From Synechococcus sp. CBW1108 (lineage in GTDB: Bacteria > Cyanobacteriota > Cyanobacteriia > PCC-6307 > Cyanobiaceae), in NCBI RefSeq assembly GCF_015840335.1, contig NZ_CP060395.1, forward strand, positions 2,021,277 through 2,085,276: a DNA stretch of 64,000 nucleotides, written 5' to 3'. Shown here piece after piece: positions 45,394-51,854 of this stretch. Made by a program: the position numbers and the translations under genes. Every line of letters begins with the position of its first letter. Position 1 is the stretch's first letter. A model generated the notes under the pieces. That model was not told the DNA's origin. It searched no databases and saw nothing but the letters and a program-made list of their open reading frames with translations.

Positions 45394-45482
45394 GTATAAC
45401 GCTGGCCATCACTTGGCCGCAGGTATACCCAGCAGAGAAGATATCCTTGCGGTGGCGGCTCAGGTGAATGGCGGTGTTAGCT
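45394..45482 (-). repeat. attC recombination site of an integron cassette
   Basis: Read on the minus strand (89 bp): R'' AGCTAAC (45482-45476), L'' GCCATTCAC, inner stem GCCGC ... GCGGC, L' GTGATGGC, spacer CAGC, R' GTTATAC (45400-45394). L'' and L' pair perfectly apart from one extra T in L'', the hallmark extrahelical base. The TAA of the DUF2442 gene (45479-45477) lies in R''. Confidence 0.82.
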
Positions 45483-45737
45483 GACCAGTGCCCTTAGCTG
45501 GGGCGCTGGCGCACCACGAAGCAGGCCTTCCACACTTAAATCCTCATCAACATCTGGCCATCGGATTCCATAGCCTGCCCCAGCAATCACCCAGTTTTCA
45601 CGCTCCTGGGAAGTTGCATGCAGAAGCCCTGGAAACCAAGCCAAAGGGATCGAGATCGATCGACCGTCAGCCAGGTCGACGATCAGCCTGTCCTCTGTTA
45701 GGGCAACGTCAGTGACCTGCTCACCAGGGTTAGCCAT
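45477..45737 (-). CDS. DUF2442 protein
   Basis: The 86-residue protein (LTEDRLIVDLADGRSISIPL, AWFPGLLHATSQERENW, GYGIRWPDVDEDLSVEGLL) is a clear DUF2442 member. DUF2442 proteins are usually paired with DUF4160 proteins, as here, and the pair is suspected to be a toxin-antitoxin or host-interaction module; no activity is proven to my knowledge. The two genes overlap by 8 bases. Its stop codon is inside an attC. Confidence 0.85.
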   Translation of the reverse strand: MANPGEQVTDVALTEDRLIVDLADGRSISIPLAWFPGLLHATSQERENWVIAGAGYGIRWPDVDEDLSVEGLLRGAPAPQLRALVS

Positions 45738-45963
45738 GAAACTCCTCCCATGCCTTCAGCAGGATAGCTCTGTTCATGCTGATCAGCCGTTCAATTTCAC
45801 GCAGCTCTCCGGCGCGAAAACCAAGGCTTGAGGCTAGCGCAACAGGAATAAGCGAGACTTTGCATGACGTTTTATCTCTATCAACATGAACATGTGGAGG
45901 CCCATTTGGTTCGTGACTGTAGAAGTAGACCCTGTAAGGTCCGCTCCTTAGAATTGTCGGCAT
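45730..45963 (-). CDS. DUF4160 protein
   Basis: The 77-residue protein has the family pattern SGPYRVYFYSHEPNGPPHVH then DKTSCKVSLIPVALAS and ELREIERLISMNRAILLKAW. It precedes DUF2442 in one cassette. An AGCTAAC core box (46014-46020 on the plus strand, R' GTTAGCT on the minus strand) lies about 50 bases upstream, the end of the preceding attC, which the IS3-family element cuts. Confidence 0.85.
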   Translation of the reverse strand: MPTILRSGPYRVYFYSHEPNGPPHVHVDRDKTSCKVSLIPVALASSLGFRAGELREIERLISMNRAILLKAWEEFHG

Positions 45964-46091
45964 CCGAAGCCACCACCATCACACCCACGATACCAACCAC
46001 GGCTTTCCTGTGCAGCTAACGCTGTCCCCCCCGCCGTCAGGAAAGTTGTCGCCCGTGCTTTTGACCACGCGGGGGCTCAAGGAGATGACCA

Positions 46092-46598
46092 GTGCGGTGT
46101 TACAGCGAGGCTGTCAAAGCTGATATCAGGAAGCGGATGAGTCCGCCTGCTCGGCAGAGCGTGGCGAGGATTTCTGAGGACACAGGCATACACATCGCCA
46201 CTCTCTACGCTTGGCGCAAGGGCTGGCGCTTGGAGGGTGAGGTGGTGCCGGCATCGCAGAAGGACCCTGAGGGCTGGAGCGCTGCCGACAAGTTCACGGT
46301 GGTGCTGGAGACCGCCGGATTGAACGCCACCGAGCTCAGCGTCTACTGCCGCGAGCGGGGCCTTTACCCGGAGCAGGTGCAGCGCTGGCGGCAGGCATCG
46401 CAGGATGCCAACGAGAAGCCGGTGCTGACCCTGAAAGAACAGAGGGAGCTGGAGAAGCTCCGCGCCCAGGACCAGCGGGAGATCAAACGGCTGCAGAAGG
46501 AACTGCGCAAGAAAGAGAAAGCCCTGGCAGAAGCGGCGGCGCTGCTGCTGGTCACAAAAAAGATGCAGGCCCTCTGGGGAGAGGCCGAGGAGGACTGA
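46092..46598 (+). CDS. IS3-family OrfA
   Basis: The 168-residue protein has an HTH (ARISEDTGIHIATLYAWRKG), a second helical domain (GLNATELSVYCRERGLYPEQ) and a C-terminal leucine-zipper-like coiled coil (LEKLRAQDQREIKRLQKELR). OrfA binds the IS ends. Near its 3' end the heptamer A-AAA-AAG (46556-46562) can cause -1 frameshifting into the orfB frame. Confidence 0.88.
   Translation: MRCYSEAVKADIRKRMSPPARQSVARISEDTGIHIATLYAWRKGWRLEGEVVPASQKDPEGWSAADKFTVVLETAGLNATELSVYCRERGLYPEQVQRWRQASQDANEKPVLTLKEQRELEKLRAQDQREIKRLQKELRKKEKALAEAAALLLVTKKMQALWGEAEED
46556..46562 (+). other. Slippery heptamer for -1 frameshift between orfA and orfB
   Basis: A AAA AAG lies in the zero frame of orfA (codons ACA AAA AAG). 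A -1 slip moves the ribosome into the orfB frame, which is open from here to 47683, giving an OrfAB fusion, the usual transposase of IS3 elements. Confidence 0.7.
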
Positions 46599-46645
46599 CC
46601 TCCGCGGCTGATCGCCGGAGGGCACTGGAGATCCTCGACGGCGCC

Positions 46646-47683
46646 GTGGCCGCCGGTGCCACGGCGGCGCGGGTTGCGGAGCGCATGGCCATCAGCCTGC
46701 GCACCCTGCAGCGCTGGAGGCGCCAGTTTGCGGGTGATGGGGACGGTGGGGACCGCCGTAAAGGCAGCGCCCGCCACGTGGGACATCGGCTGAGCCACCA
46801 GGAGCGCCAGCAGATCCTGGTGGTCTGCAATGAGCCGCAGTACGCCTCGCTGCCACCGGCCCAGATCGTGCCCGATCTGGCCGATCAGGGCGAGTTCGTG
46901 GCCTCCGAGAGCAGCTTCTACCGCGTGCTCCACGCCCACCAGCAGGTGCAGCGCCGCGGACGGGCCAGACCGCCGCAGGAGCCAAGGCCGGTGCCCCGGC
47001 GACGTGCTGATGGCCCCAACCAGCTCTGGAGCTGGGACATCACCTACCTGCCCACCAGCGTGCGGGGCGTGTGGCTATACCTCTACCTGGTGGTGGACGT
47101 CTGGAGCCGCAAAATCGTGGCCTGGGACATCGCCGAGCGGGAGGAGGCCCAGGTGGCCGCTGATCTGATCAGCAGAGCCTGCATCCGGGAGCGGGTCAGC
47201 AAGCGCCGCCAGCGCCGGCTGGTCCTGCACGCCGACAACGGCAGCGCCATGCGCGCCGCCACGCTGGAGGTGCGGCTGGAAGAACTCGGGGTGCTGCGCT
47301 CCTTCTCCAGGCCACGGGTGTCCAACGACAATCCCTACTCCGAGGCGCTGTTCCGCACTGCCAAATACCGGCCCGACTACCCCAGCAGACCCTTTGCCGG
47401 CAAGGAGGAGGCCTGCCAGTGGGCAGCGGCATTCGTGCACTGGTACTGCCACGAGCACCGCCACAGCGCGATCAAATTCGTGACGCCGCAGCAGCGGCAC
47501 AGCGGCCAGGCCCCTGACATCTGCCAGCAGCGCACGCTGGTCTATGAGCAAGCCCGCCAGCGCCATCCAAAGCGTTGGTCAAGGTCCATCCGCTGCTGGC
47601 AACAACCCGACGTTGTCTGGATCAATGAACCACCAGATGACATAACAGCCGAGGAAGAGTTACTCTTTCGACAGGTGGCCTGA
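46646..47683 (+). CDS. IS3-family OrfB transposase
   Basis: The DDE integrase-type transposase has an N-terminal HTH part (TAARVAERMAISLRTLQRWR), LWSWDITYLPTSVRGV (first Asp), VLHADNGSAM (second Asp) and SNDNPYSEALF (Glu). The frame stays open upstream to the slippery site at 46556, so the natural product is probably the OrfAB fusion; the GTG at 46646 is only the first visible start. Intact, unlike the relative at 19284-20102. Confidence 0.9.
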   Translation: MAAGATAARVAERMAISLRTLQRWRRQFAGDGDGGDRRKGSARHVGHRLSHQERQQILVVCNEPQYASLPPAQIVPDLADQGEFVASESSFYRVLHAHQQVQRRGRARPPQEPRPVPRRRADGPNQLWSWDITYLPTSVRGVWLYLYLVVDVWSRKIVAWDIAEREEAQVAADLISRACIRERVSKRRQRRLVLHADNGSAMRAATLEVRLEELGVLRSFSRPRVSNDNPYSEALFRTAKYRPDYPSRPFAGKEEACQWAAAFVHWYCHEHRHSAIKFVTPQQRHSGQAPDICQQRTLVYEQARQRHPKRWSRSIRCWQQPDVVWINEPPDDITAEEELLFRQVA

Positions 47684-47712
47684 ATAGGCGCCGACCGGCG
47701 ACATCTTCCTAA

Positions 47713-49335
47713 GAAACACCCACGGCCTACAGGGATCTCGGCCAGTCATCCGGTTGGGACCAGCTGGTAACCAAGCGCTTTTGCACGCCGTTCCAGCCCA
47801 CGCACGTGTCGCTCTTGTGATGCCTTCTGGTAAGCAGAAGCGCCCGGCTCTTGAAAAGCCATGCCATATCTCAGCATTTTATAGTAAAGAATGGCAATCT
47901 TGCGAGCTGTGGCTATCAATGCCTTCCCTTTACCAACCCTTGCAGATAGTCGCCGCTGGAATGCACCCAAGGCAGTGTTAGTTCTGCTGATTGGCACTGC
48001 TGCCATCCAAAAAGAACTGCCGGCCCTGGTAGCCCCCTGTCGTGTCCGCGAGGAAAGCACTCGGCCACCAGAGATCTTATTCTGCGGGCTCAACCCAAGC
48101 CATGAGACAAAATGCTTGGCGCTAGGCCAGCGGCTCATGTCGAGCCCACACTCACTGATCAAGGTGATCACCGTTGCAGGCCCGAGACCAGGCAGGCTTA
48201 ATAGGTCATGGCCTGCCAACGATGTGATCAGGGCCTGAGGATTGAACGAAAAGCCATTGCTCCTGATTTGGCAGTCGCTTGCTTGTTTTTCAGGCTCAAC
48301 ATAGTCGCCCCCAGCTAACTCATTCAGGACGACTTGGCCGGCCAATTCGCATTCTCGAATCTTTTCTGAATAAGCATCGAACATCTCTACTGCAACCTTA
48401 AGTTCAAAGAGATGTTCTTCTTGATAGTTGCCATCGAGAGCGGCAGCGATCGTTGCTTCTGTCTCCTTGCAGCGGCGATCGCGCAGTGTAGCCAGCTTCT
48501 CTGGATTTCGTTCTCCTGAAAGGATGGCATCAATGACTCTGCGAGCAGTCTGACCAGTGATGTCTTTCACAACATGATGTAGCTGTAGGTTCATTTGCAT
48601 GAGGGCTTTCTGCATGTGCTGCTGATGCGAGGAGCGGTAACGCACTAAAATGTCACGCTGCCGAAAGTAGGCTCTCAGCTTGGCGATGCAGGGATCGGGC
48701 TGGAAGCTCGCGCGAACAAGACCATGGCTGTGAAGTTGCTGCAACCACTGAGAATCACTGATATCAGTCTTGCGACCGGGGACATTCTTTGCGTGCCGAG
48801 CATTAACCAGAAAGACTTCGATGCCTCGACCCACGAGTATTTCGTAGAGTGGAACCCAGTAGATTCCAGTTGACTCCATGGCTACCGTCTTGATGTCGAT
48901 GGCGAGCAACCATTCAGCTATAGACTTCAGATCATTAGTAAAGCTTGAGAATTTCAGCACTGGGTCATCGTCAAGCTCTGCTGGTACCGCTACAACATGG
49001 AACCGACTACCGATGTCTATTCCTGCGGAGCGTGGATTGACCACTCTGAGGCGCGCACGTCGGCGGCGCGAGGGGGAAGAACTTCCTGGCATACATCCGC
49101 TGCAATGGGTCTGAGGAGGGAGGCCAGGCAGATTCCGCGCTAAAAAATGAACAGTTTCCTAATCGGGATCAGCACCTGGATTTCTCCAGAAGTGTCGTCG
49201 CCAGGGCAGGGAGCGCTGTGGGAATCCAGACCACGTTTCCTTTCGGGAACAAGCCTCCAAAGATGTCATCGGTCATGGCCTGACGTCCCCATGACCAGTC
49301 TGGCAGAGGCCTTTGGACTTGGCCGTGGGTGTTTC
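47713..49335 (-). mobile_element. IS110/IS1111-type insertion sequence next to an attC site
   Basis: The 15-bp inverted repeats GAAACACCCACGGCC (47713-47727) and its complement (49321-49335) flank the transposase gene; subterminal repeats mark the IS1111 subgroup. The ends lie a few bases outside. About 230 bases upstream of the transposase start are non-coding and may encode a bridge RNA. The left end lies about 45 bases from an attC (49381-49464). IS1111-attC elements are known to target attC sites. Confidence 0.7.
47746..49092 (-). CDS. IS110-family DEDD transposase
   Basis: The 448-residue protein has the N-terminal RuvC-like DEDD domain (SAGIDIGSRFHVVAVPAEL with the first Asp, AMESTGIYWVPLYEIL with Glu, KTDISDSQWLQQLHSHGL with the Asp pair) and the C-terminal Transposase_20 domain (LLSLPGLGPATVITLISE, FVSWLGLSPQNKISGG, catalytic-Ser region TRAGSSFWMAA). 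Such enzymes recombine DNA under guidance of an IS-encoded bridge RNA. Intact. Confidence 0.9.
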   Translation of the reverse strand: MPGSSSPSRRRRARLRVVNPRSAGIDIGSRFHVVAVPAELDDDPVLKFSSFTNDLKSIAEWLLAIDIKTVAMESTGIYWVPLYEILVGRGIEVFLVNARHAKNVPGRKTDISDSQWLQQLHSHGLVRASFQPDPCIAKLRAYFRQRDILVRYRSSHQQHMQKALMQMNLQLHHVVKDITGQTARRVIDAILSGERNPEKLATLRDRRCKETEATIAAALDGNYQEEHLFELKVAVEMFDAYSEKIRECELAGQVVLNELAGGDYVEPEKQASDCQIRSNGFSFNPQALITSLAGHDLLSLPGLGPATVITLISECGLDMSRWPSAKHFVSWLGLSPQNKISGGRVLSSRTRQGATRAGSSFWMAAVPISRTNTALGAFQRRLSARVGKGKALIATARKIAILYYKMLRYGMAFQEPGASAYQKASQERHVRGLERRAKALGYQLVPTG

Positions 49336-49380
49336 GGACGCGAGGGCGTGCTCAGGGGTACTGGTACGTTTCCTGAAAGT

Positions 49381-49464
49381 TACCGTCCCTGAGTGGCAGG
49401 CAAGGACTTTAGAGCGCAAGCAGGGAATCGGGGGTGGCCTGTCCACTCCAGGGGCTTGTTATCC
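49381..49464 (-). repeat. attC recombination site, R' end altered
   Basis: Read on the minus strand: R'' GGATAAC (49464-49458), L'' CCCTGGAGTGG, inner stem CAGGC ... GCCTG, L' CCACTCAGGG (49396-49387). L'' and L' pair perfectly except for one extra G in L''. The R' side reads GGTAAC instead of GTT, probably changed by the nearby IS insertions. The matching core may be the AGCTAAC at 46014, beyond the two ISs. HicB stops 7 bases before R''. Confidence 0.72.
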
Positions 49465-49470
49465 GTTCCT

Positions 49471-49803
49471 TTATGCCGTGACACTTCTCTGGAGTGCTTC
49501 TTGAGCGAGCGTATTGAGACTCTTTCCCTGCACCTCCGCAGTCATCGCCAATTTCTCGTGTAGTTCAGGCGGAATCCGAAGATTGAATTTGCCTGAAAAT
49601 TGTCTGCGCGGCTCGATTCCTTGCTCCTTGCAGACCTCAAGAAAGACATCCAATGACTTTTTGAACTCTCGGCGAAGCTCATCTGGACTGGATCCATAGA
49701 AGTCCGCTCCTCCAGAAAGGCCAAGAATTTCCCCGCGAAACTGATTCGTTTCTTCGTCGTACTCAATTCTGGCGTGGTAGCCATCCACATTCATCAGGTT
49801 CAT
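49471..49803 (-). CDS. hicB: HicB-family antitoxin
   Basis: The 110-residue protein has an N-terminal degenerate RNase-H-like fold (GYHARIEYDEETNQFRGEIL, GADFYGSSPDELRREFKKSL) and a C-terminal RHH domain (FNLRIPPELHEKLAMTAEVQ then SLNTLAQEALQRS), the HicB design. It neutralises HicA and represses the operon. It follows hicA with a 4-base overlap. In this window the pair is the cassette nearest hoxH. Confidence 0.9.
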   Translation of the reverse strand: MNLMNVDGYHARIEYDEETNQFRGEILGLSGGADFYGSSPDELRREFKKSLDVFLEVCKEQGIEPRRQFSGKFNLRIPPELHEKLAMTAEVQGKSLNTLAQEALQRSVTA

Positions 49804-50054
49804 GGTGTCACTCCGTGTTCTTCAAACCATTTGCGGATTGAAGCAACAGCACCCTTGTCTGTATCAGGCGATGGGTGGGGTCTGTGAAAGACCCTGACTT
49901 CGCCAAACAGAACGACCGCGACTCGGCTGCCCGCCCTCTCACTGACATTCCCACCAAGCTCCTGAAACAGGGCTTCGATGTCCCTCCACGGCAAACTGCC
50001 GCTTGCAGGTCGGGAGAAGATCAGCTCAAGGGTTCGCTGGCGCTTTCGCTTCAT
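49800..50054 (-). CDS. hicA: HicA-family mRNA interferase toxin
   Basis: The 84-residue dsRBD-like protein fits HicA: RTLELIFSRPASGSLPWRDI, ALFQELGGNVSERAGSRVAV and FHRPHPSPDTDKGAVASIRK, with the catalytic His in the FHRPHP segment. HicA cleaves mRNA. A core-like box GTTATCC (50122-50116, minus strand) lies about 60 bases upstream. Confidence 0.9.
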   Translation of the reverse strand: MKRKRQRTLELIFSRPASGSLPWRDIEALFQELGGNVSERAGSRVAVVLFGEVRVFHRPHPSPDTDKGAVASIRKWFEEHGVTP

Positions 50055-50127: not shown

Positions 50128-51854
50128 AGGGCTTGCTGAGGAACCAATATCCATTGCGCTGCAGTTGATTCCAGGAATGGTCTAACGTTAAAATGAGCCA
50201 AATGTAGCCATTCCTGGCTTAGAACAATCTGCTGACACGCCAATGTACGTTTTTCAGCACGCAGGTCAGCTATCAATCGAGGAGTTTTACACGCCCTTCG
50301 GCGGCAAGCTGGATGCCAATAATCGCTGGGTTCTGCTTCGTAACCTGATTCCATGGATGCCACTGGAAAGCCAGTATGCACCCCGATTCAGTGCCAAGAC
50401 AGGAGCACCGGCCAAGCCGTTTCAGATGGCGTTCGGTGCGCTGTACATCCAGCAACGCCTGGGAGTGACAGACCGCGAAACGGTTCAGCTGATCACGGAA
50501 TCACCGTATCTACAATTTTTCATTGGCTTGAGTGCGTACCAGGCAATGCCGCCGTTTGATCCATCAATGATGGTGCATTTTCGTAAGCGCATTGGCCCTG
50601 ATCTGATCAAGATCTGCAATGACATGACCAAGGCCAATGGCATTGCGATGATTAAAGAGATGCTGGTTTCGGCTGAGGAAGATGCTAGCGAAGAAGAAGA
50701 GGAGCAACAGCTTGCTGCCATCGACGAAGCGCTAGGGGTGAAGCCTGCAACGTTGGATCCTGAAAGTAACTGGGGTACTCTGATTCTTGATGCAACCTGC
50801 GTGCCTGATGACATTCCCTACCCAGTAGATCTGAGGTTGCTCAACGAAGCGAGAGAGGCTACTGAGAAGATCATCGACGAACTGTTCAAGCAGTTGCAGG
50901 GAAAGATCAATCGTAAACCCCGCTGCAACCGGGATAAAGCTCGGAATCGGTTTCTGGCGATCATCAAGAAGAAAAAGCCCAAATCCGCCGAGATCCGGAG
51001 AAACCTCAGAGCAATTGATCAGATGATCCACTGCGGTGTCATGCTTTTGGAGCTTGGAACCCAGCTCTACCGCAAGCTGCTGATCACCAGTGAACTGTAC
51101 CGGAAGCAGCAGGAGATGTATGACGCTGATAGCCGGCGCATCGACGATCGGATTGTCAATTTGTCAAAACCACACGTGCGGCCGATCGTGAGGGGCAAGG
51201 CGGGAAGGCGAACAGAGTTCGGTGCGAAGATCTCAATATCAGATGATAATGGTTTTGTAGATGTTGATCGCATAAGCTGGGACAACTACAATGAAGCCAA
51301 CGACCTAATCGCACGTGCCAAGCAATACAAGGAAGAGCGAGGGTACTATCCAGCGCGAATCTGTGCCGATTCAATCTATATGACATTAGGCAACAAGAAG
51401 TTCTGCGCAGAAAATAACATCAGACTCAGTGGTCGTCCACGCAAGAAGCAGGTCGAGGCCGAGGTGCAGACAGCAGAGCAACAAGAGCTTTTTAAATCAG
51501 ACTTGAGAAAGCGTTCCGTGATCGAGGGAAGAATCGGAACGAGCAAACGGAAATATGGACTGGATCAGATAATGACCAAGCTGATTGAAACATCAAGAAC
51601 GGTGATCACTATGGCGTTCTTTGTGATGAATGCCGAGAAGATTCTGAGGCTACTGCGCTTCTTGTTCTCTATTCTTGTTTCTGTGTACATCCTGATGCTC
51701 TATTTGTTTGCATCCTGGCGCCGTCCAGCGCCTCTGTGGGCTGCTTAGTCAGCTTCTGGGAGTAAAACTGAGGTCACCAGCGCTTGGCGCTGCAGGCTGA
51801 GATCGCGGCCATTTGCGCGCCCGAAAATCCCGAAAACGAAATTCAGCAAGCCCT
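50128..51854 (+). mobile_element. IS5-like insertion sequence, copy B
   Basis: The 1727-bp copy has the same 12-bp ends as copy A and a 4-bp target duplication TATT (50124-50127, 51855-51858). It is 33 bases shorter than copy A because of an in-frame loss of 11 codons in the transposase. It lies in the cassette array upstream of hicA. Confidence 0.92.
50243..51748 (+). CDS. DUF772/DDE transposase, copy B, 11-codon deletion
   Basis: The 501-residue protein is nearly the same as copy A but lacks 11 residues between AEIR and RNLRAI (near residue 250), where the direct repeat GAGATCCG probably caused the loss. The DDE motifs (LILDATCVPDD, ICADSIYMT, VIEGRIGTSK) are kept. Activity is uncertain because the lost stretch is in the linker between domains. 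Confidence 0.9.
   Translation: MYVFQHAGQLSIEEFYTPFGGKLDANNRWVLLRNLIPWMPLESQYAPRFSAKTGAPAKPFQMAFGALYIQQRLGVTDRETVQLITESPYLQFFIGLSAYQAMPPFDPSMMVHFRKRIGPDLIKICNDMTKANGIAMIKEMLVSAEEDASEEEEEQQLAAIDEALGVKPATLDPESNWGTLILDATCVPDDIPYPVDLRLLNEAREATEKIIDELFKQLQGKINRKPRCNRDKARNRFLAIIKKKKPKSAEIRRNLRAIDQMIHCGVMLLELGTQLYRKLLITSELYRKQQEMYDADSRRIDDRIVNLSKPHVRPIVRGKAGRRTEFGAKISISDDNGFVDVDRISWDNYNEANDLIARAKQYKEERGYYPARICADSIYMTLGNKKFCAENNIRLSGRPRKKQVEAEVQTAEQQELFKSDLRKRSVIEGRIGTSKRKYGLDQIMTKLIETSRTVITMAFFVMNAEKILRLLRFLFSILVSVYILMLYLFASWRRPAPLWAA

What the first reader, a model, noticed from the sequence alone, without database searches (positions are those of the whole stretch)
47713..49464. IS110/IS1111-type element beside an attC, with a candidate bridge RNA
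A DEDD transposase gene is bounded by 15-bp inverted repeats and lies about 45 bases from a well-paired attC whose R' half looks displaced. Known: IS1111-attC elements insert specifically in attC sites, and IS110 enzymes use a bridge RNA from the IS non-coding end. The ~230 non-coding bases at 49093-49335 (minus strand) are the candidate. A cyanobacterial attC-targeting IS110 would give a natural guide/target pair.
Basis: partly seen in the sequence, partly recalled or inferred. Interest (0 to 1): 0.72.

Follow-up and report, generated by a model that had tools for sequence, protein, structure and literature searches.

The report
RNA-guided jumping gene inside another
A cyanobacterial jumping gene that was thought to have landed in an integron site has really landed in the end of a different jumping gene, and it appears to carry a short RNA whose sequence spells out that landing site; its relatives carry RNAs matching other sites, so the guide looks naturally rewritable.

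Summary
The element is real: an intact 448-aa IS110-type DEDD transposase gene with perfect 15-bp subterminal repeats. It does not target attC. Copies in related genomes fix its ends at 47706-49368. Both flanks belong to an IS3-family element (46029-49385), and that IS3 element split the attC (halves at 46015-46028 and 49386-49463, TCCC duplicated). The target is the IS3 terminal inverted repeat, CAGGAAA|GATGTC.

The upstream non-coding region carries a bridge-RNA-like structure supported by compensatory changes in 37 relatives (0 of 500 shuffles as good). Its target loop spells AGGAAAGATGTCA. That 13-mer occurs exactly 19 times in the 3.23-Mb genome, always in IS3 left ends; 22 of 23 one-mismatch hits are IS3 right ends. 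The attC matches 7 of 13, about chance.

Across eight guide types in relatives, the left target guide follows the left flank (2 of 40,320 permutations as good), and a donor guide follows the element's own end. Most relatives target the IS3 frameshift A-run; the cyanobacterial lineage targets IS3 ends.

The architecture mixes IS110 traits (RNA upstream, long protein) and IS1111 traits (long repeats, right-then-left guide order). The mechanism is inferred from sequence; no RNA or transposition was measured.

The parts
47706..49368 (-). IS110-type element, 1663 bp (CGTACC...TTAGGAA in the sense of its gene)
   Evidence: Shared ends and diverging flanks in copies of G023, G083, G080, G134, G064; empty sites
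47746..49092 (-). DEDD transposase/recombinase gene, 448 aa, intact
   Evidence: ORF and Pfam PF01548 and PF02371; candidate DEDD residues D26, E73, D110, D113 and S341-G342 invariant in relatives; IS621 match E 2e-12
47713..47727 (+). subterminal inverted repeat, 7 bases from the downstream end of the element
   Evidence: 100% complementary 15-mer
49321..49335 (-). subterminal inverted repeat, 33 bases from the upstream end of the element
   Evidence: 100% complementary 15-mer
49133..49297 (-). candidate bridge RNA (region aligned; true ends unknown)
   Evidence: Covariation in 37 relatives
49259..49268 (-). right target guide UGACAUCUUU, complementary to AAAGATGTCA
   Evidence: Run of 9 pairs with the own right flank against 3-5 with others; genome-wide match
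49235..49243 (-). left target guide AAAGGAAAC, equal to the left flank AGGAAA
   Evidence: Guide follows flank over eight types
49154..49162 (-). left donor guide UUAGGAAAC, equal to the element's own downstream end TTAGGAA
   Evidence: Changes in step with that end in relatives
49229..49232 (-). 3' side of the stem that closes the target loop (GGUC)
   Evidence: 98.6% paired, 3 of 4 pairs with compensatory changes
49271..49274 (-). 5' side of the same stem (GACC)
46029..49385 (+). IS3-family element, interrupted in its right terminal repeat by the IS110-type element
   Evidence: orfA 46092-46598 and orfB 46646-47683; ends as in 18 intact 1710-bp copies
46025..46028 (+). TCCC, left copy of the IS3 target duplication (exact limit ambiguous by one or two C)
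49386..49389 (+). TCCC, right copy of the IS3 target duplication
46015..46028 (+). left part of the attC split by the IS3 element
   Evidence: Joined attC resembles four other attC-type copies of the genome
49386..49463 (+). right part of the same attC

Best explanation
A gene-cassette attC was first split by an IS3-family element, with a TCCC duplication. The right terminal repeat of that IS3 element was then the target of an IS110-type element. The IS110-type element most likely works as an RNA-guided recombinase. Its upstream non-coding region would be transcribed, probably from the circle junction, into a bridge RNA (seekRNA) of the kind known from IS621 and ISEc11. One loop holds a right target guide (UGACAUCUUU) and a left target guide (AGGAAA), which together specify AGGAAA|GATGTCA in IS3 ends. 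A second loop holds UUAGGAA, equal to the element's own downstream end (donor). The DEDD enzyme would join donor and target at an AA core. Shown by sequence: the nesting, the ends, the target, the intact gene, and covariation of RNA structure, left target guide and left donor guide with their DNA partners. Inferred: transcription, binding, the circular intermediate, catalysis.
For: Ends fixed by copies in other genomes. The insertion junction recurs in IS3 ends of at least five genomes, in left and right ends. Unoccupied IS3 ends identical in 20 of 20 bases to the joined flank of the G083 copy. The guide-encoded 13-mer occurs 19 times in 3.23 Mb, all IS3 left ends, against about 0.1 expected; 22 of 23 one-mismatch hits are IS3 right ends. 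RNA stems covary: score 0.439 against 0.198 in shuffles, 0 of 500. The left target guide follows the flank in eight types, 2 of 40,320 permutations as good. The donor guide follows the element's own end. Homology to IS621.
Against: No RNA, circle or transposition was measured. The right guide is clear for the window's copy and one IS3-frameshift relative but not for most other types. No right donor guide was recognised. One close relative (L027, G134) sits in an ordinary gene, with a match on the left side only. Of about 40 IS3 ends in the genome only two are or were occupied. Guide positions were chosen after looking at the sequences.
Confidence: 0.87

Rival explanations
1. An IS1111-attC type element that inserted into, or next to, the attC.
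For: The attC starts 17 bases from the element's end, and attC-targeting IS1111 elements are known (PMC11187229).
Against: The flanks are IS3 sequence on both sides. The guide matches the attC 7 of 13, about chance. The long non-coding region lies upstream, not downstream, of the gene. No relative examined sits in an attC.
Confidence: 0.02
2. The site is chosen by the enzyme itself or by the IS3 repeat as a protein-recognised site; the match of RNA and target is inherited chance.
For: Close relatives share both guide and target by descent, so they are not independent; no experiment was done.
Against: Guide and flank change together in eight types spread over distant bacteria. The donor guide changes in step with the element's end. 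The 13-mer is matched in full. RNA-dependent targeting is established for IS621, ISEc11 and ISEc21 (PMC11208160, PMC11187229).
Confidence: 0.07
3. The IS110-type element is in an IS3 end by chance, because IS3 copies are numerous in this genome; there is no site selection.
For: The genome holds 18 intact IS3 copies, and IS-in-IS nesting is common.
Against: The same junction to the base occurs in at least five genomes, in left and right IS3 ends and in one orientation relative to the IS3 end; the flanks join to an intact IS3 end without extra bases.
Confidence: 0.02

Closest known systems
IS621 (IS110 group; bridge RNA and structure known; PMC11208160, PMC11208158)
   Same: DEDD recombinase with the same two domains (E 2e-12); RNA in the upstream end; a target loop and a donor loop; target guides overlap a dinucleotide core
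   Different: Protein 448 aa against 328; 15-bp subterminal repeats against 2-3 bp; guides in the reverse order in the loop; AA core; target is an IS3 end, not a REP element
ISEc21 (IS110 group; seekRNA shown; targets a conserved stretch inside IS3-family transposase genes; PMC11187229)
   Same: Upstream non-coding region; target inside IS3-family elements; natural retargeting in a relative
   Different: Different site in IS3 (terminal repeat here); guide order reversed; long subterminal repeats; longer protein
ISKpn4, ISPst6, ISPa25 (IS1111 group, attC-targeting; PMC11187229)
   Same: Long subterminal repeats; top-strand match 5' of the bottom-strand match in the RNA
   Different: They insert in attC and have the RNA downstream of a shorter gene; this element does neither
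IS1383 in the inverted repeats of IS1384; IS4321/IS5075 in terminal repeats of Tn21-family transposons (titles in the reference list of PMC11208160)
   Same: An IS110/IS1111-type element that selects the terminal repeat of another mobile element
   Different: Different host elements; their sequences were not compared here

Membership tests
IS110/IS1111 superfamily (DEDD recombinases) | RuvC-like DEDD domain (PF01548) and PF02371 domain with the SG motif | tested here: met
   Both Pfam models above cut-off; candidate D26, E73, D110, D113 and GLSPQNKISGG invariant or conserved
IS110/IS1111 superfamily (DEDD recombinases) | No duplication of target bases; constant orientation in a defined site | tested here: met
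   Joined flanks equal empty sites without extra bases; same orientation relative to the IS3 end in all copies read
IS110 group | Long non-coding region upstream of the gene | tested here: met
   49093-49368 upstream, 47706-47745 downstream
IS110 group | Subterminal repeats absent or very short | tested here: not met
   15 of 15 complementary
IS110 group | Left (bottom-strand) guide 5' of right (top-strand) guide, as in IS621 and ISEc21 | tested here: not met
   Right guide at 49259-49268, left guide at 49235-49243, RNA on the minus strand, so right comes first (compare)
IS1111 group | Subterminal repeats of about 7-17 bp | tested here: met
   15 bp
IS1111 group | Extensions of 7 (or 6) and 3 bases beyond the repeats | tested here: not met
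   33 and 7 bases
IS1111 group | Long non-coding region downstream; protein of 330-350 aa | tested here: not met
   Upstream; 448 aa
IS1111 group | Top-strand match 5' of bottom-strand match in the RNA | tested here: met
   definition
IS1111-attC subgroup | Insertion in attC | tested here: not met
   Flanks are IS3; guide does not match attC
Bridge RNA / seekRNA | Conserved structured RNA encoded in the non-coding end | tested here: met
   (0 of 500 shuffles)
Bridge RNA / seekRNA | Left target guide and left donor guide match their DNA partners and change with them | tested here: met
Bridge RNA / seekRNA | Right target guide matches | tested here: inconclusive
   Clear for the window's copy and L076, not for most other types
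Bridge RNA / seekRNA | Right donor guide | tested here: inconclusive
   Looked for by eye in the aligned second loop; none recognised; IS621's is discontinuous too
Bridge RNA / seekRNA | RNA is made, binds the enzyme and is needed for movement | not testable with these tools
   Needs experiments

The most novel reading that the evidence does not exclude
This subfamily of roughly 430-450-aa IS110-type elements represents a bridge-RNA architecture not described in the papers read here: RNA upstream of the gene, but with IS1111-like long subterminal repeats and guides in reverse order. It would have specialised on functional sites of another IS family (the IS3 frameshift A-run and, in cyanobacteria, the IS3 terminal repeats) by rewriting its guide loop.
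Probability: 0.45. Interest if true: 0.65.

Novelty: new variant of a known kind. Interest (0 to 1): 0.5.

Why it matters
It gives a family in which guide and target have changed together several times in nature, so rules of guide pairing can be read from sequence. It also offers a candidate enzyme from the long-protein IS110 subgroup, outside the elements tested in the two founding studies read here. It shows one mobile element apparently using an RNA guide to seek out the essential ends of another, which presumably immobilises that copy.

Tried and rejected
attC as target: rejected. Single-sequence folding of the DNA attC region and of the RNA: uninformative (z -0.10 and 0.17). Rfam: no match. 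Viral contigs: only two distant relatives. A first pattern for unoccupied sites (TYAGSAARNTGTC) assumed two A in the core and gave mostly chance hits in genes; the correct site has three A. A script to count in-frame IS3 frameshift junctions failed because orfA ends soon after the site; it was replaced by a simple right-flank motif count, 48 of 67, which has no control. The right guide could not be shown across all types. A simple right donor guide was looked for by eye and not found. Structure prediction and a transposase tree were not run: the Pfam and IS621 matches already fix the fold family, and no named reference set was at hand. A Paracoccus mobilome paper was checked for an earlier IS110-in-IS3 report and gave nothing.

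Full report
What is there. The ORF at 47746-49092 (-) encodes a 448-aa protein with DEDD_Tnp_IS110 and Transposase_20 domains, full length, with the candidate catalytic residues invariant in relatives. Perfect 15-bp inverted repeats lie at 47713-47727 and 49321-49335. The window lies in a single-contig genome of 3.23 Mb, which holds one more, truncated copy, 77% identical over about 670 bases; no other intact gene of the family was found there.

Where the element ends. Relatives in the same bacterial family were collected from 400 genomes. Four identical copies in G023 and single copies in G083, G080, G134 and G064, read in the sense of the transposase gene, share CGTACC (CGAACC in G023) on the upstream side and GTTTCTTAGGAA on the downstream side and diverge outside, apart from the target itself. 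The element is therefore window 47706-49368, 1663 bp, and the 15-bp repeats are subterminal, 33 and 7 bases from the ends.

What it is inserted in. To the left lie orfA (46092-46598) and orfB (46646-47683) of an IS3-type element. To the right, the 17 bases after the element end are TTTCCTGAAAGTTACCG, the right end (one base different) of the IS3 copies that are abundant in this genome. The genome holds 18 intact IS3 copies of 1710 bp, with left end GGTTTCAGGAAAGATGTCAC and right end ACTTTCAGGAAAGTTGTCAC. The IS110-type element sits inside the right end of a diverged IS3 copy. That IS3 copy sits in an attC: the left part GCTAACGCTGTCCC is at 46015-46028 and the right part starts TCCCTGAGTGG at 49386, with TCCC as the duplication. 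Joined, they make an attC like other attC-type copies of the genome, and the joined sequence folds better than the right half alone (-15.8 against -12.7 kcal/mol, a longer sequence). So the order is attC, then IS3, then IS110-type.

Target of this lineage. The truncated copy of the same genome also has an IS3 right end as its left flank (CGGTGACTTTCAGGAAA). G083 and G064 are in IS3 left ends, G080 beside IS3 orfB sequence, G023 three times in IS3 left ends and once 208 bases beyond an IS3 orfB. G134 is the exception, inside an ordinary gene at CAAGGAAA|CGATGG. The joined flank of the G083 copy equals, in 20 of 20 bases, the left end of unoccupied IS3 copies of the window's genome.

The RNA. 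In most of 80 relatives from genome contigs, the upstream region keeps the motif CCCG-N6-AAC-N-TGG and, further down, CCCG-N-TTAGGAA. Alignment of 37 of these regions supports a stem that closes the first loop and a hairpin in the second. For ten named pairs, 89% of cells are standard pairs, 55 cells have changes on both sides, and the covariation score is 0.439 against 0.198 (sd 0.018) in shuffles, 0 of 500; slid versions reach at most 46% paired. RNAalifold finds the same stem on its own. The structure was named with the alignment in view, so the slid control favours it somewhat, and the shuffles do not keep relatedness.

Guides and their partners. In the first loop the window's RNA reads UGACAUCUUU (5' side) and AGGAAA (3' side). 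The first is complementary to AAAGATGTCA, the right part of the IS3 end; the second equals the left part. Together they spell AGGAAAGATGTCA. This 13-mer occurs 19 times in the genome, all IS3 left ends; with one mismatch there are 23 further hits, 22 of them IS3 right ends. By chance about 0.1 exact hits are expected (13 bases, both strands of 3.23 Mb). The joined attC matches 7 of 13 at best. In relatives the 3' side of the loop follows the left flank: AGCAAA in G023 and in a Nitrosospira copy (flank GGCAAA there), TTAAAAAA in copies at the IS3 frameshift run, TTCAGAG in G526, ATGTGAG in G727, TAGAG in G490, AGTTAG in G573. With one representative of each of eight types, 52 of 64 positions agree with the own flank against 28.6 on average; 2 of 40,320 permutations do as well. 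Across 74 distinct loci, most of which have an A-run, the agreement exceeds all 10,000 shuffles. In the second loop, TTAGGAA equals the element's own downstream end; in relatives with TCAGGAA, TGAGGAG, TTAGAAG or TTAGGAG ends the loop changes in step, with a few exceptions. The right target guide is clear for the window's copy (run of 9 with its own flank, 3-5 with other flanks) and for one IS3-frameshift relative (7 against at most 5), but not for most other types. A right donor guide was not recognised. The sequences are related and the positions were picked after inspection, so the numbers support but do not prove pairing.

The wider subfamily. Most relatives sit at the A-run where IS3-family orfA and orfB overlap (GACATCCTAAAAAA|GGCCACCGCGTACTTCGCC): 48 of 67 right flanks with a recognisable end show this motif (a motif count without a control). 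In G170 and G140 copies the joined flank GAGTGGCTCAAAAAAA|AGTCTC is identical to 51 sites present in G023. The lineage of the window thus differs from most of its relatives in its target, the IS3 terminal repeat instead of the IS3 frameshift site; which came first was not tested. Four copies in G526 sit in a short hairpin repeat instead.

Comparison with what is known. IS621 has its RNA in the upstream end, with the left guide 5' and the right guide 3' (PMC11208160). ISEc21, an IS110 member, also has the bottom-strand match first, and its target lies in IS3-family genes; IS1111 members have the top-strand match first, the RNA downstream, subterminal repeats with extensions of 7 and 3 bases, and proteins of 330-350 aa (PMC11187229). 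The element here has the RNA upstream and a long protein as in the IS110 subgroup, but long subterminal repeats and right-then-left guide order as in IS1111. The PMC11187229 authors note exceptions in RNA location themselves, so the mixture is a variant, not a new kind. Selection of another element's terminal repeat has precedents (IS1383 in IS1384; IS4321 and IS5075 in Tn21-family repeats; titles in the reference list).

Mechanism, and what is only inferred. By homology with IS621 and ISEc11 the element should excise as a circle, transcribe the RNA from the joined ends, and recombine at a shared AA core with an IS3 end that pairs with both guides. Insertion separates the IS3 tip from the rest of its terminal repeat and should disable that copy. 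None of these steps was measured.

Verdict. Observation partly right, target wrong, kind of mechanism probably right. Interest 0.5: RNA-guided, IS-on-IS targeting has precedents, but the clean guide/target genome count, the natural retargeting series and the mixed architecture make this lineage a useful test case.

Noticed in passing
window 45395-45485, 45477-45963, 49471-50054; G000 678465-679822 and 2913005-2914121: attC-type sites next to small two-gene pairs (a HicA/HicB-like pair at 49471-50054 and a second small pair at 45477-45963, named by eye from their sequences); no integron integrase over the family cut-off in the whole genome, so this looks like a cassette cluster without an integrase.
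   Followed up: partly
window 50243-51748: A further transposase gene (DUF772 and DDE_Tnp_1_2 domains) next to the cassette region; the region is dense in mobile elements.
   Followed up: no
G000, 18 places paired: An IS3-family element with 18 intact 1710-bp copies and several lone ends, so a recent burst in this genome.
   Followed up: partly
L143, L147, L150, L151 (G526): Four identical relatives inserted in a short hairpin repeat (AGTCCTCTTCAGAGGACT); their guide reads TTCAGAG and their donor end TGAGGAG, both matched in the RNA.
   Followed up: partly
L082, L055, L093: Right flanks that begin with the element's own start or repeat its own end, which suggests tandem or dimer insertions.
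   Followed up: no
L081:2400-2580 against E. coli genomes: A stretch of up to 181 bases around the start of the Salmonella relative's gene matches a place beside a PTS ascorbate transporter gene in E. coli genomes, probably a remnant of such an element.
   Followed up: no
G000:215471-215483 (L131): A lone IS3-end-like sequence CCCCCGGTTTCAGGAAGATGTCACC, one A shorter than the guide-specified site, with no intact IS3 element recognised beside it.
   Followed up: no
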